From Chthoniobacteraceae bacterium (GTDB taxonomy: Bacteria; Verrucomicrobiota; Verrucomicrobiia; Chthoniobacterales; Chthoniobacteraceae): a DNA stretch of 48,811 bases. Made by a program: the position numbers and the translations under genes. Position 1 is the stretch's first letter. Each line of letters begins with the position of its first letter. The DNA is taken from NCBI GenBank assembly GCA_947476045.1, contig CANJNZ010000028.1, positions 1 through 48,811 of the forward strand. Reading direction: 5' to 3'. The notes under the pieces were generated by a model. The model worked only from the letters and a program-made list of their open reading frames with translations, was not told the DNA's origin and did no database searches. This document shows positions 8,248 through 48,733 of the stretch, piece by piece.

Positions 8248-9038
8248 TCGTGGCCTGCGCTCACCGCCGCGTCGCCTTCGCGGACGTGTTTCAGATCAGC
8301 GACGATGATGAACGTCACGATGACCAGCAGCGACCACGAACTGATCTTGCTGGCATCCACTGCGCTCCATCCAGTGCGCTGATTGGGATACACCCACGCG
8401 CCGAGGAATGTGGCCATATTTTCTGCTACCCACACAAAGAAACCGATGAGCACAAAACTGAGCACCATTGGCATTGCGCGCTCTCGTTCCAGCACGGTGA
8501 AATGCACACGCGTCCGGGCAAAAACGACGACCACTGCAGCAACGAGCCACCAGCGGAAGTCACCGATGAAATGGTGCGTGAAGAAGTTCACGTAAATCGC
8601 AGCGCTGATGGAGATGCTCAGCGCGTGCGCGGGGTATCCGGTGAGTCGCAACTTCATAATACGCCATGACTGGCACATGTAGCTGGCGACTGCCGCATAC
8701 ATGAATCCGCTGAAAAGCGGCACCAATCCGATTTTCAAAATGCCGGGCTCCGGGTAGCTCCACGAATGGATTCCGGGTTGGGTTTTGAAAAGCTCAAGCC
8801 CCAGCCCGAGCGCGTGAAAAACTGCGAGCACTGCGGCTTCTGCCAGCGTCTCAATGCGCGCGGCCAGAAGTGCGAACTGGATGAGCATCGTGGCCACGAG
8901 GATGAAATCGTAGCGTGCCAACCCGACGAAATGGACGTGCCTCGAGAAGAGCAGAACGAGAAAAAACAGCCCGGCAAAAACACAGGCGCGTGCCTGCTTG
9001 AATCCAAACACGAAAAACTCATGAAGGAATTCGCGCAT
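8244..9038 (-). CDS. DUF817 family integral membrane protein
   Basis: A DUF817 membrane protein of 264 residues with about seven or eight hydrophobic segments. Recognisable family stretches are FLHEFFVFGFKQARACVFAG at the start, LELFKTQPGIHSWSYPEPG and LVPLFSGFMYAAVASYMCQS in the middle. The function of the family is unknown. I chose the ATG at 9038; a GTG one codon earlier is also possible. The gene sits 18 bases downstream of the DUF4407 gene on the same strand, so the two are probably cotranscribed. Confidence 0.88.
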   Translation of the reverse strand: MREFLHEFFVFGFKQARACVFAGLFFLVLLFSRHVHFVGLARYDFILVATMLIQFALLAARIETLAEAAVLAVFHALGLGLELFKTQPGIHSWSYPEPGILKIGLVPLFSGFMYAAVASYMCQSWRIMKLRLTGYPAHALSISISAAIYVNFFTHHFIGDFRWWLVAAVVVVFARTRVHFTVLERERAMPMVLSFVLIGFFVWVAENMATFLGAWVYPNQRTGWSAVDASKISSWSLLVIVTFIIVADLKHVREGDAAVSAGHD

Positions 9039-31250: not shown

Positions 31251-31279
31251 CCGCGGCTCCCATCGTGAAAGTCCTCGCC

Positions 31280-32317
31280 ATGCGATTCATCGAGACCGTT
31301 TACGAAAAACTCAGAAAACACCCCAAGCGCATCGTCTTTCCCGAGGGAACCGAACCCGCCGTCCTCCGCGCCGCTGGACGTTTCGCCCGCATGGGCCTCG
31401 GCACGCCCATCCTCATCGGCAACCGCGCCGAAGTCGAAAAAGTCGCCGCCGCCGAACACATCAGACTCACCCACATCGGCATCGTGGACCCCTCCACATC
31501 CTCCGAAATGGAAACCTTCATCCCCCGTCTCGAAAAACTCGCCCGCTACCGCAGCCTCGGCCACGACCAAGTGCGCGAAACTTTGCTCATGCCGACTTAC
31601 TTCGCCGCCATGATGCTCCAATACAACCTCGTGGACGGCCTCGTCGTCGGCGCCGGCCTCACCCCCGCCAACACATTGCGCCCCCTCATCACCCTCATCA
31701 AGCCCCTCCCCGGCATCTCCACCATCTCCAGTTGCCAGATGCTCGACCTCAGCAACAAACGCTACGGCGAACGCGGCGTCATCTTCTTTGCCGACTGCGC
31801 CGTCATCCCCGAACCCACCGTGGACCAGCTCGCCGGCATCGCCATCGAGACCGGCAAAGTCTGCCGCCAGCTCACCGGCAACAAACCCCGCATCGCCTTC
31901 CTCAGCTACTCCAACAAAAGCGGCTCCACCCGCGCCGCCGTCCAGAAAATCTCCGCCGCCACCGCCCTCGCCAAACAACGCGCCGCCGAAGCCGGACTCG
32001 AGATGGAAATTGACGGCGAAATGCAGGCCGACACCGCCATCGTCCCCGACCTCGCCAGCATCAAAGGCGGCGACTCCCTCGTCGCCGGAAAAGCCAACGT
32101 CCTCATCTTCCCCGACCTCAACAGCGCCAACATCGCCAGCAAACTCGTCAAATACCTCGCCGGCGCCGAAGCATACGGCCAGCTCCTCCTCGGCATCTCC
32201 AAACCCTGCGCCGACCTTTCGCGCGGTGCCACCGACGACGAAATCCTCGGCGTCGCCGCCACCATAGGCCTCCAAGCCATCCAATACCGCAGTCTCTACC
32301 CCGAGACAGCCGCGTAG
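31280..32317 (+). CDS. pta: Phosphate acetyltransferase, catalytic domain only
   Basis: Phosphotransacetylase (acetyl-CoA + phosphate to acetyl phosphate + CoA), 345 residues. The whole protein is the PTA_PTB catalytic domain: RIVFPEGTEPAVLRAAGRFA, LIGNRAEVEKVA, NLVDGLVVGAGLTPANTLRP, ITLIKPLPGISTISSCQML, IAFLSYSNKSGSTRAAVQKI, IDGEMQADTAIVPDLAS and NVLIFPDLNSANIASKLVKY. It corresponds to the C-terminal half of the long E. coli enzyme or to the short Methanosarcina-type enzyme. The N-terminal P-loop/DRTGG half is found separately at 33865-34956. I chose the ATG at 31280; a GTG at 31265 adds five residues. No acetate kinase gene is in the window. Confidence 0.93.
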   Translation: MRFIETVYEKLRKHPKRIVFPEGTEPAVLRAAGRFARMGLGTPILIGNRAEVEKVAAAEHIRLTHIGIVDPSTSSEMETFIPRLEKLARYRSLGHDQVRETLLMPTYFAAMMLQYNLVDGLVVGAGLTPANTLRPLITLIKPLPGISTISSCQMLDLSNKRYGERGVIFFADCAVIPEPTVDQLAGIAIETGKVCRQLTGNKPRIAFLSYSNKSGSTRAAVQKISAATALAKQRAAEAGLEMEIDGEMQADTAIVPDLASIKGGDSLVAGKANVLIFPDLNSANIASKLVKYLAGAEAYGQLLLGISKPCADLSRGATDDEILGVAATIGLQAIQYRSLYPETAA

Positions 32318-32364
32318 CGGCTTACAGATAGCTGGATGTCGCAATACAATTAACCACCTATCAT

Positions 32365-33729
32365 ATGCTCTCCAAACAGCAGCCCAGTAAACTTTCCCCT
32401 GACTTCGCGAAGTCAGGGGAAAAAGCTAACAACGACTTGGCTGTCGCATTCAAAAGCGTGGATTCGGGACTTATTGCACTCCGAGCCCGGCACGATGCGT
32501 TTATCAAAGCTACAAAGGGGAATTTTAATCTTTTCACCGTTCTTCGAGAGGTAGGTGAAGAAGTGGGTTTGCATTCTCGGTGGCTGGCATTTTTGCTCAA
32601 TCCGAATGCTACGCATGATTGCGGCACCCTATTTCTGAGTTTGTTTTTAAAAACTCTGCGTCAGGGCGTTCAACCACACGAGGATGATGCTGCGCCATGC
32701 GAACTCGAAGGCCTTGATTTGTTTGCTTGCGATACGGCAACCGTCCGTATCGAGGTCAACAGCGAGGAAGGGCGAATGGATATAGTAATTGAGAGCCTTA
32801 AATGGGGCATTATTGCTATAGAGAATATGGTTTGGGCAGACGAGCAGAAACTACAAATTGAGCGCTATGCAAAAGAACTCGAACGAACCTGCGAGCATTT
32901 CCACCGCAAATCGCTGCTAATATATTTAACGACGGACGGTCGAAAATCAGAGCAGGCTGGAACACGTTCAGGCAAATACTACCGTGCCTCATACAGCCAC
33001 CACATCCTGCATTGGCTCGAAGAGTGCCTGCGAGCAACGTATCGCTTCCCGAATATCAATCTAGCAATCCAACAATACGCTGCTTTGGTGAGACACATCA
33101 CTGGTAGCGGTGGTGATTACGAGTTTATGAAAGACGTTATCGAACTACTCAAAGTGCACCCCTCGCTTATCGAAAATATGCAGAATCTCCGCAGCGCCTA
33201 TGAGCAATTGCGGTCAAATTTTTGGAAGGAATTCGTATGCGAATTACAATTGCAGCTTCGTTCTCTCGGAATCGAGTGTGGGGAACCAAAACCCTCGCGA
33301 TCTCGACATATTCAAATCTATCTGGGGGCGAAACATTTTGTGTCATTTGATACGAACACTGAGCTGCGATTCATGATCGAAAGGCAGGATGGTGTTCCAG
33401 GCCTGTGGTTCGGGCTCGCTATCCACCATTACGGCGATGAAACAAAAAAAATTGGGAATCGCATTACGAAAAATGCAGCTCAATTTGTTACGATAACATC
33501 ACAATGGTTGACGGACTTTCCATCGCGATTCCGTGGCATTGTGAATGAATGGTGGCCGCTTGGTCATTTAGTCATTTCGGATGATTTTCTTTCGGAAAAA
33601 TATCTAGCTGAAAATGCGACTAACGGCAGCAAACCCGTTGCCGAACAAGTTAAGAAATTTTGCGCGGACATCGTTACTTTCTTAAAACCTGTTGAGACCC
33701 TTTGGCCCAAACGCGGAAAAACACTTTAG
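32365..33729 (+). CDS. PD-(D/E)XK nuclease superfamily protein (PDDEXK_4-like), low GC
   Basis: A 454-residue protein resembling the PDDEXK_4 group. Features are a conserved N-terminal block REVGEEVGLHSRWLAFLLNP (61-80), the acidic strand GRMDIVIES with D139, and IIAIENMVWADEQKLQIERY. In that last block the usual E-x-K appears as E153-N-M155, so the lysine is replaced by methionine. The C-terminal part (from about 290) is beta-rich and unassigned. Possible roles are defence or mobile-element nuclease; the altered motif leaves activity uncertain. Hand counts give 26/60 and 25/60 GC at 33481-33540 and 33601-33660, against 38/60 at 34201-34260 in the next gene, pointing to acquisition from elsewhere. 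Codons 10-20 contain a perfect 30-base palindrome. The ATG at 32365 is the only early ATG. Confidence 0.75.
   Translation: MLSKQQPSKLSPDFAKSGEKANNDLAVAFKSVDSGLIALRARHDAFIKATKGNFNLFTVLREVGEEVGLHSRWLAFLLNPNATHDCGTLFLSLFLKTLRQGVQPHEDDAAPCELEGLDLFACDTATVRIEVNSEEGRMDIVIESLKWGIIAIENMVWADEQKLQIERYAKELERTCEHFHRKSLLIYLTTDGRKSEQAGTRSGKYYRASYSHHILHWLEECLRATYRFPNINLAIQQYAALVRHITGSGGDYEFMKDVIELLKVHPSLIENMQNLRSAYEQLRSNFWKEFVCELQLQLRSLGIECGEPKPSRSRHIQIYLGAKHFVSFDTNTELRFMIERQDGVPGLWFGLAIHHYGDETKKIGNRITKNAAQFVTITSQWLTDFPSRFRGIVNEWWPLGHLVISDDFLSEKYLAENATNGSKPVAEQVKKFCADIVTFLKPVETLWPKRGKTL
32393..32422. repeat. Perfect 30-base palindrome inside the nuclease-like coding start
   Basis: Two 15-base arms meet with no spacer: TTTCCCCTGACTTCG followed by its exact reverse complement. 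It encodes about LSPDFAKSGEK at residues 10-20. Neither side has a T run, so it is not an ordinary terminator. It may be a palindromic element or a translation-controlling hairpin. Confidence 0.9.
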
Positions 33730-33827
33730 TAAAACTAGCTTTATGTCCGCCAGATTGGGCGTTGAGCAGCGGGCGCGTCTGTGCGTGTATGGGCGAGTGA
33801 TGTTTTCCAACCATCAAGTTGCGATGT

Positions 33828-33862
33828 TGTTTCGGATTCCGGGCTTCGGGCTTCGGGCTTTG
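33828..33862. repeat. Short tandem repeat before the DRTGG gene
   Basis: TTCGGATTCCGGGCTTCGGG runs on as CTTCGGGCTTTG, giving three copies of the GGGCTTC word in tandem directly upstream of the ATG at 33865. It lies in the space between the nuclease-like gene and the DRTGG gene. Similar TTCGG-type tandem words are common in intergenic repeats of related bacteria, but I cannot confirm a family from one window. Confidence 0.45.
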
Positions 33863-33864
33863 CC

Positions 33865-34956
33865 ATGAACTCGGTCACGCCACGCATTTTCATCGCTGCC
33901 ACGCAGCAGAACGACGGAAAGACGACGGTGGCGCTGGGGCTTTTCAATGCGTTGCGGAAGACACATGGGCGCATCGGGTTCATCAAGCCGGTGGGGCAGC
34001 ATTTCGTGGAAATCGAGGGGCACAAGATTGACGAGGACACGGTGCTCATTGACCAGACTTACGGGATTTTTGCGCCGCTGGATGCGATCAGCCCGGTCGC
34101 GGTGGAGCCGGACTTTACGCGCAAATTCATCCAGCAGGCGAACACGGATATGCTGGTGCGCCGGATTCAGAATTCGTTCGACCGCGCGGCGTGGGAGAAG
34201 GATTTCGTCATCATCGAAGGCACGGGGCACGCGGGCGTGGGCTCGGTCTTTGACCTCTCGAATGCGCGGGTGGCGAAGCTGCTCGGCTCGAAGGCGATCA
34301 TCATCACCGAGGGCGGCATCGGCAGGCCGATTGACGAGGTGGCGCTGAGTCACGCGCTGTTTGAAAAGGAGGGCGTGGAGGTGCTCGGCGTGGTGCTGAA
34401 CAAGGTGCTGCCGGAGAAATACGATTACGTGGTGGAGTTCGCGGGGCGTGGTTTCAAGCGACTCGGCATCGAGCTGCTCGGGGCGATTCCGAGTGATGTG
34501 ATGCTTTCACACCCGACGCTGGGGCAGGTGTGCAAGGCGGTGAAGGGAGAGTTCATCAATGCGCGCACCAGTTCGCGGCGTCTCGCGCGACGCGTGCTCA
34601 TCGGCGACATGGAGACGGGGCATATGCTTTCGCATTTCACGCCCGGCACGCTCGTGATCACGCCCGGCGACCGCGAGGATGTGGTGCTCGCTGCGGTGTC
34701 GCTCGTGGGCCAGCACGCACGCGGGCTTTGCGGGCTGGTGCTGAGCAGCGACCTGCGCCCAAACGAGACTGTGATGCAGGTTTTGCACGACAGCGATCTC
34801 CCGGCCATCGCTTCGCCGCTCGACAGCTACACCATCGCGAGCCGCATCCATTCGATGACGATCAAAACACTTCCCGGCGACACGGAGAAAATCGAACGCA
34901 TCCAGGCGCTCACGGAAAAGCACATCAACCTAGAGCGGCTGCTCGGGAAGTTGTAG
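33865..34956 (+). CDS. Pta N-terminal-type P-loop/DRTGG protein
   Basis: A 363-residue protein with the two domains that form the N-terminal half of long phosphotransacetylases. The BioD-like P-loop domain (about 1-210) has IAATQQNDGKTTVALGLF with G18-K19-T20-T21, FIKPVGQHF, VIIEGTGHAGVGSVFDLSN and IIITEGGIGRPIDEVALSHA. The DRTGG domain (about 225-325) shows ARRVLIGDMETGHMLSHFTP and TLVITPGDREDVVLAAVSL. In E. coli Pta this half is regulatory. A catalytic PTA_PTB half is absent here but encoded at 31280-32317. It may regulate Pta in trans or have an independent role. The ATG at 33865 directly follows tandem GGGCTTC repeats (33839-33860); upstream residues in frame come from these. Confidence 0.85.
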   Translation: MNSVTPRIFIAATQQNDGKTTVALGLFNALRKTHGRIGFIKPVGQHFVEIEGHKIDEDTVLIDQTYGIFAPLDAISPVAVEPDFTRKFIQQANTDMLVRRIQNSFDRAAWEKDFVIIEGTGHAGVGSVFDLSNARVAKLLGSKAIIITEGGIGRPIDEVALSHALFEKEGVEVLGVVLNKVLPEKYDYVVEFAGRGFKRLGIELLGAIPSDVMLSHPTLGQVCKAVKGEFINARTSSRRLARRVLIGDMETGHMLSHFTPGTLVITPGDREDVVLAAVSLVGQHARGLCGLVLSSDLRPNETVMQVLHDSDLPAIASPLDSYTIASRIHSMTIKTLPGDTEKIERIQALTEKHINLERLLGKL

Positions 34957-48701: not shown

Positions 48702-48733
48702 TAGATTGCGTAGTCGTTACGCTACGCAATCTA
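48702..48733. repeat. 12-bp inverted repeat at the start of the IS-encoded ORF
   Basis: TAGATTGCGTAG (48702-48713) and CTACGCAATCTA (48722-48733) are perfect complements around an eight-base loop. It ends on the first base of the ATG at 48733, so the hairpin in the RNA would mask the start codon. This may limit expression of the transposition gene when it is read from outside promoters, a known strategy in insertion sequences. Confidence 0.8.

What the first reader, a model, noticed from the sequence alone, without database searches (positions are those of the whole stretch)
32393..32422. Perfect 30-base palindrome within the first 20 codons of the nuclease-like gene
The two 15-base arms meet with no spacer and no mismatch; by chance this is very unlikely. 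It is in frame (residues about 10-20, LSPDFAKSGEK) and lies before the first conserved protein block. It may be an inserted palindromic element of the kind that stays open in frame, a binding site for the protein itself, or an mRNA hairpin controlling the gene.
Basis: seen in the sequence. Interest (0 to 1): 0.6.

Follow-up and report, generated by a model that had tools for sequence, protein, structure and literature searches.

The report
Lone palindrome before defence-like nuclease gene
A perfect 30-base DNA palindrome really does sit at the very start of a horizontally acquired, defence-like nuclease gene, but no second copy was found, the gene's relatives do not carry it and it lies outside the conserved protein, so it is most likely a local hairpin in the gene's leader rather than a new kind of element.

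Summary
Window 32393-32422 is a 30-base palindrome with no spacer or mismatch, beyond chance: 7e-5 expected per window; the longest arm in 200 simulated windows was 13. It looks single-copy: the 20-base core has no second place in its genome at up to 3 mismatches, the 22-base core no exact match in the species-genome or IMG/VR collections, and arms with 0-10-base loops occur in none of 56 relatives. That argues against a dispersed palindromic element.

The gene is PF14281 / PADLOC candidate PDC-S26, in a ~1.55-kb low-GC insert between two genes adjacent in its closest relative. Of 29 anchored homologue rows, 17 have an in-frame stop excluding equivalent residues; 8 of 8 annotated homologues examined start downstream of its left end, 6 of 8 beyond its right end. 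A TTG 14 nt after it fits the family N-terminus, so it is probably leader, or a private extension.

It is not terminator-like and no similar element precedes homologues. Best guess: a leader hairpin damping translation; a neutral relic is nearly as likely. The catalytic lysine is methionine, so the nuclease may be inactive.

The parts
32393..32422 (.). Perfect 30-bp zero-spacer palindrome (as RNA: 13-bp stem with CGCG loop in context)
32365..33729 (+). Longest ORF of the PD-(D/E)XK nuclease-like gene (454 aa; PF14281, PADLOC PDC-S26)
32437..32439 (+). Alternative TTG start (codon 25), 30 codons before the conserved N55 anchor, 14 nt after the palindrome; inferred, not shown
32770..32829 (+). 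Active-site region: D139 (GRMDI) to E153-N-M155; the catalytic Lys position is Met (ATG codon at 32827-32829)
32307..33857 (.). Low-GC insert (approximate ends); the nuclease ORF is the only listed ORF of 100 aa or more lying wholly inside it; empty site (18 nt) in closest relative G001/L013
31265..32317 (+). Upstream neighbour, phosphate acetyl/butyryl transferase domain (PTA_PTB)
33858..34956 (+). Downstream neighbour, AAA_26 + DRTGG protein, next to PTA_PTB in five of seven relatives' loci compared; listed ORF starts at GTG 33781, homology to L013 DNA resumes near 33858

Best explanation
The palindrome is a hairpin-forming sequence, single-copy as far as searched, in the leader (or a non-conserved N-terminal extension) of a horizontally acquired PDC-S26-type nuclease gene inserted into a pta gene pair. 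SHOWN: sequence, statistics, no second copy in the searches made, position before the family's conserved N-terminus, an insert with an empty site in the closest relative, no terminator-type T-run. INFERRED: translation starts at TTG 32437 (or elsewhere downstream of the palindrome); the transcript reads through from pta; the 13-bp stem (about -20 kcal/mol) just upstream of the start limits ribosome loading or marks the mRNA for processing, keeping expression of a potentially harmful nuclease low.
For: Hairpin -20.1 kcal/mol alone; the 171-nt region folds at z = -3.04 against shuffles. The family N-terminus maps to window residues ~13-30: PADLOC profile position 23 aligns to residue 42; the 8 plasmid homologues whose annotation I fetched (8 of 21 records matched) start 25-42 codons before anchor N55, against 54 for ATG 32365 and 30 for TTG 32437; 17 of 29 other anchored homologue rows have an in-frame stop nearer than 45 codons. 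One homologue (L081) is annotated from a TTG at the same distance of 30 codons. Same-strand insertion between genes adjacent in the closest relative.
Against: No relative shares the hairpin, so there is no conservation or covariation. 12 of 29 homologue rows are open 45 codons or more upstream of the anchor, so a longer N-terminus is not excluded. The outer stem that would pair the TTG is no better than with shuffled flanks (fractions 0.18-0.44). I see no Shine-Dalgarno-like motif at good spacing before any of the three starts (by eye), so the TTG has no support of its own from the DNA. Promoter-like matches in the region are at shuffle level, and one weak terminator-like site lies after the nuclease gene (33776-33795), so read-through is unproven. 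Zero-spacer perfection is not needed for an RNA hairpin (a self-complementary 4-base loop has about a 1 in 16 chance). The nuclease may be catalytically dead (K to M), which weakens the reason to restrain it.
Confidence: 0.36

Rival explanations
1. Neutral relic: a replication template-switch or hairpin-correction event made or perfected a short inverted duplication in an unconstrained stretch of a foreign, possibly decaying gene; it has no function.
For: No second copy and no counterpart found in relatives; residues not conserved; exact zero-spacer symmetry is what such events can leave (established knowledge, not tested); the catalytic Lys position is Met, and the nearest relative found, L116, is itself broken.
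Against: The ORF stays open through it; the 5' end of a gene is where cis-regulatory dyads are expected. No sister sequence without the palindrome was found to show the event.
Confidence: 0.34
2. DNA operator: a dimeric repressor (unlinked, or the product itself) binds the dyad and represses the gene, as WYL/BrxR or C-protein type regulators do for other defence genes.
For: Perfect even-centred dyad, expected for a DNA site; WYL-domain genes adjoin 3 of the 8 plasmid homologues fetched; BrxR operators are inverted repeats between promoter and gene (PMC9122601, passages).
Against: No other ORF of 100 aa or more lies wholly in the insert, so no linked regulator is apparent there; Pfam finds only PDDEXK_4 in the product; no similar site elsewhere in the held genome; no recurring dyad upstream of homologues. 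The BrxR boxes described are 11-bp imperfect repeats with a 5-bp spacer, unlike this.
Confidence: 0.17
3. In-frame mobile palindromic element (Rickettsia palindromic element / REP / MITE type).
For: 30 bp = 10 codons, stays open, residues absent from most homologues aligned.
Against: No second place in the own genome at up to 3 mismatches, no exact 22-base core in the species-genome or IMG/VR collections, near-matches in 213 order genomes at control level, arms with 0-10-base loops in 1 of 57 genomes, this one; no target-site duplication seen (by eye).
Confidence: 0.05
4. Pure coding coincidence or assembly artefact.
For: Draft assembly of 123 contigs; reads not available.
Against: Chance expectation 7e-5 per window; unlike a fold-back chimera, the symmetry ends after 15 bases and the frame continues on both sides.
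Confidence: 0.05

Closest known systems
Operator dyads of defence genes (e.g. BrxR/WYL boxes)
   Same: Inverted repeat at the 5' end of a defence-type gene
   Different: The BrxR boxes described are 11-bp imperfect repeats with a 5-bp spacer, the first downstream of a -10 box (PMC9122601, passages); here the arms are 15 bp, perfect and unspaced, with no linked regulator apparent
Rickettsia palindromic elements (recalled; only search listings seen)
   Same: Palindromic DNA that stays open in frame
   Different: RPEs are longer (~100-150 bp, recalled) and multi-copy (recalled); this is 30 bp with no second copy found
Intrinsic terminators
   Same: Strong GC-rich stem
   Different: No T-run after either arm; polarity is TTT-stem-AAA
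PDC-S26 (PADLOC) / PF14281 PDDEXK_4
   Same: Profile matches 1.1e-61 and 1e-28
   Different: Catalytic Lys position is Met; long private leader or N-terminal region

Membership tests
PADLOC PDC-S26 / PF14281 nuclease family | Near full-length profile match | tested here: met
   PDLC04983 1.1e-61 over residues 42-443; PF14281 1e-28 over 54-239
PADLOC PDC-S26 / PF14281 nuclease family | Intact D...ExK catalytic residues | tested here: not met
   D139 and E153 present, Lys position is M155; 35 of 38 distinct aligned local sequences have K, the others M (this gene), R and F
PADLOC PDC-S26 / PF14281 nuclease family | Anti-phage activity | not testable with these tools
   Candidate family by name; no paper in the library searched holds the term PDC-S26
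Dispersed palindromic element (RPE/REP/MITE) | Multiple similar copies in the genome or its relatives | tested here: not met
Intrinsic terminator | GC-rich stem followed by a T-run | tested here: not met
Operator (BrxR/WYL-like) | Linked regulator gene and recurring site | tested here: not met
   No other ORF of 100 aa or more wholly inside the insert; no second site in the held genome
Operator (BrxR/WYL-like) | Protein binding to the dyad | not testable with these tools
   Needs a gel shift
cis-acting mRNA leader hairpin | Stable stem-loop | tested here: met
   -20.1 kcal/mol; z -3.04 for the region
cis-acting mRNA leader hairpin | Lies in the leader, upstream of the real start codon | tested here: inconclusive
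   Homologue N-termini favour a start after it, but ATG 32365 is not excluded
cis-acting mRNA leader hairpin | Conserved or covarying stem | tested here: not met
   Not found near the start of homologues, including the nearest found, L116; no Rfam family above its gathering score

The most novel reading that the evidence does not exclude
A single-gene defence island whose nuclease has lost its catalytic lysine carries a perfect 30-bp dyad before its start that the protein itself binds: a former nuclease turned DNA-binding autorepressor that keeps its own dyad as operator.
Probability: 0.03. Interest if true: 0.65.

Novelty: new member of a known kind. Interest (0 to 1): 0.22.

Why it matters
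It shows how a striking palindrome inside an ORF can be a start-site question: relatives suggest that the ORF's first ~24 codons may be leader. If the hairpin does restrain a horizontally acquired nuclease, it would be a simple example of how one-gene defence islands are kept quiet inside a host operon.

Tried and rejected
Dispersed element: rejected for lack of copies (the last two collections by exact 22-base match only, and records very near this genome may be left out of them). In one search, 16 of 212 other order genomes have a place within 3 mismatches of the 20-base core, all at 3, against 20 of 213 genomes for the reversed control (my count from the list): chance level. One of the 16 (G455) is itself nearly palindromic; I did not follow it up. 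Near-matches of a single arm in the own genome number 8 besides the two arms themselves, against 3 for the control, a small excess that I did not pursue.

Terminator: rejected. Known RNA family: only sub-threshold matches, two to microRNA families and one to an mRNA 3'UTR stem-loop. Conserved upstream dyad: rejected. In one search (250 bases before the anchor, arms of 9 or more, loops 0-8) 1 of 29 other homologue rows has a hairpin, L077 with a 9-base arm; 10 further rows had a gap at the anchor and were dropped, and 16 duplicate rows were collapsed. In one search, 44 loci (158,381 bases) hold 9 hairpins with arms of 11 or more: 7 lie 3' of the gene (in L116 beyond the break), 2 lie upstream, in L088 about 520 bases before the open frame and in L114 about 225 bases before the likely start; neither resembles this palindrome, apart from polarity in L114.

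Two-tier structure hiding the TTG: looked attractive but no better than with shuffled flanks. AlphaFold2 with a 3-row alignment gave mean pLDDT 49.5, low at the N-terminus and low overall: inconclusive. Homologue searches with the single protein in genome contigs and viral contigs found no relative. Plasmid and phage DNA searches with a 50-base query gave 1 and 5 records at E of 3 to 4, that is chance.

Full report
WHAT WAS CLAIMED. A perfect 30-base palindrome at 32393-32422, in frame near the start of a nuclease-like gene. The sequence is exactly as described. It is the longest zero-spacer palindrome in the window and in a 448,811-base sample of its genome, where the next best has arms of 10. 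Expected number is 6.6e-5 per window and 0.006 per 4.37 Mb by base composition; 200 Markov-3 windows never gave arms above 13. Seven spaced hairpins with perfect arms of 12-15 occur in the same sample; four of them are followed by a T-rich run (by eye). This one has TTT before and AAA after the stem and no T-run on either strand, and the terminator scan does not list it.

IS IT A REPEATED ELEMENT? No sign of it. The 20-base core has no second place in the held 4.37-Mb genome at up to 3 mismatches. The 22-base core has no exact match in the species-genome collection (84,980 species) or in IMG/VR. Arms with any 0-10-base loop are found in 1 of 57 genomes, this one. Among 213 genomes of the order, near-matches are at control level: 16 of 212 others, against 20 of 213 for the control.

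THE GENE AND ITS SURROUNDINGS. The ORF 32365-33729 matches PF14281 PDDEXK_4 (1e-28) and PADLOC's PDC-S26 (1.1e-61; a candidate single-gene defence family by its label). GC drops from about 0.62 to about 0.46 over the gene. The closest relative genome (G001, 94-96% identical DNA on both sides) has 18 nt where the window has about 1,551 (homology ends near 32306 and resumes near 33858). Of seven relatives' loci compared, five (L013, L015, L017, L018, L019) match on both sides of the insert, so the PTA_PTB and AAA_26/DRTGG genes are neighbours there; L014 and L016 match on the AAA_26 side only. So a lone nuclease gene appears to have been inserted on the same strand into an existing gene pair. 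With the single protein, 1 of 56 related genomes has a weak match and 13 of 386 other phylum genomes have one; with the PDLC04983 profile it is 30 of 386, and the own genome has a second, weaker match on C71. The nearest relative found, L116 in IMG/VR, is 55% identical over 51 residues and 43% over 79.

WHERE DOES THE PROTEIN START? Taking N55 (FNLF) as anchor, ATG 32365 is 54 codons upstream, TTG 32437 is 30 and GTG 32458 is 23. The eight annotated plasmid homologues that I fetched (of 21 records matched) start 25, 25, 29, 30, 31, 32, 42 and 42 codons before the anchor. The palindrome spans codons 45 to 35 before it, so 8 of 8 start after its left end and 6 of 8 after its right end. Of 29 other homologue rows that could be anchored, 17 have a stop in frame less than 45 codons before the anchor and cannot encode an equivalent of residues 10-20; 12 are open further (10 rows with a gap at the anchor were dropped and 16 duplicate rows collapsed). 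In the alignment of eight, six of the seven homologues have gaps across window residues 3-18, and L074 has residues only from 11 on. So the palindrome lies in sequence that most of the family does not have: probably leader, otherwise a private extension. I see no clear ribosome-binding site before any of the three starts, so the choice of start is inference.

WHAT DOES IT DO? As RNA it forms a 13-bp stem with a CGCG loop in context (-20.1 kcal/mol alone; region z = -3.04). Only the palindrome itself is unusual: surrounding pairing, including a stem over the TTG, is no stronger than with shuffled flanks. No homologue row carries a similar element near its start (1 of 29 has a 9-base-arm hairpin), and L116 has no hairpin with arms of 9 or more in its first 300 bases. 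Seven of nine long hairpins in 44 homologue loci lie 3' of the gene and two well upstream. A leader hairpin restraining translation is my first choice (0.36), a neutral template-switch relic almost equal (0.34), an operator third (0.17). The operator idea draws on WYL-domain genes beside 3 of the 8 plasmid homologues fetched and on published BrxR boxes (PMC9122601, passages seen), but no regulator is apparent in the insert and the dyad is unlike those boxes. A survey of perfect inverted repeats (PMC13155455, passages seen) reports that bacteria favour 4-base spacers and positions downstream of genes and upstream of transcription starts; a 5'-end dyad is therefore not alien.

UNEXPECTED. The catalytic lysine of the ExK motif is methionine (IENMVW against IENKI; 35 of 38 distinct local sequences have K). 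The protein may be inactive as a nuclease, or the base may be an error in a draft assembly. This slightly favours the relic reading.

VERDICT. Real, non-chance, single-copy as far as searched, and outside the conserved protein; kind of feature known; function unproven. Interest 0.22.

Noticed in passing
window 32827-32829 (residue 155): Catalytic Lys of the PD-(D/E)XK motif replaced by Met in this gene; 35 of 38 distinct aligned local sequences have Lys.
   Followed up: partly
window 48702-48733: Perfect 12-bp inverted repeat with 8-base spacer, present at three places in the genome (C28:48702-48733, C59:79-110, C78:182-213), each within about 215 bases of a contig end: probably part of a multi-copy repeat or mobile element that broke the assembly.
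   Followed up: partly
window 31265-32317 and 33781-34956: PTA_PTB and AAA_26+DRTGG domains, fused in E. coli Pta (recalled), are separate neighbouring genes in this lineage and are split apart here by the nuclease insert.
   Followed up: partly
window 32226-32306 versus L013: The last ~80 bases of the PTA gene before the insert diverge much more from the closest relative than the DNA before them (alignment), hinting at recombination next to the insertion.
   Followed up: no
L112 (G000:C71, match at 8561-9001): A second, weaker PDC-S26-type match in the same genome (81 bits).
   Followed up: partly
L116 1-640 and 1000-2280: Nearest relative found of the nuclease is broken (frame change, truncation), with a gene that looks like a tyrosine recombinase downstream (by eye; no tRNA gene found).
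   Followed up: partly
L114 1701-1746: 19-bp-arm perfect hairpin with 8-base loop about 225 bases before the likely start of a PDC-S26 gene in a viral contig, same TTTT-stem-AAAA polarity but otherwise different sequence.
   Followed up: partly
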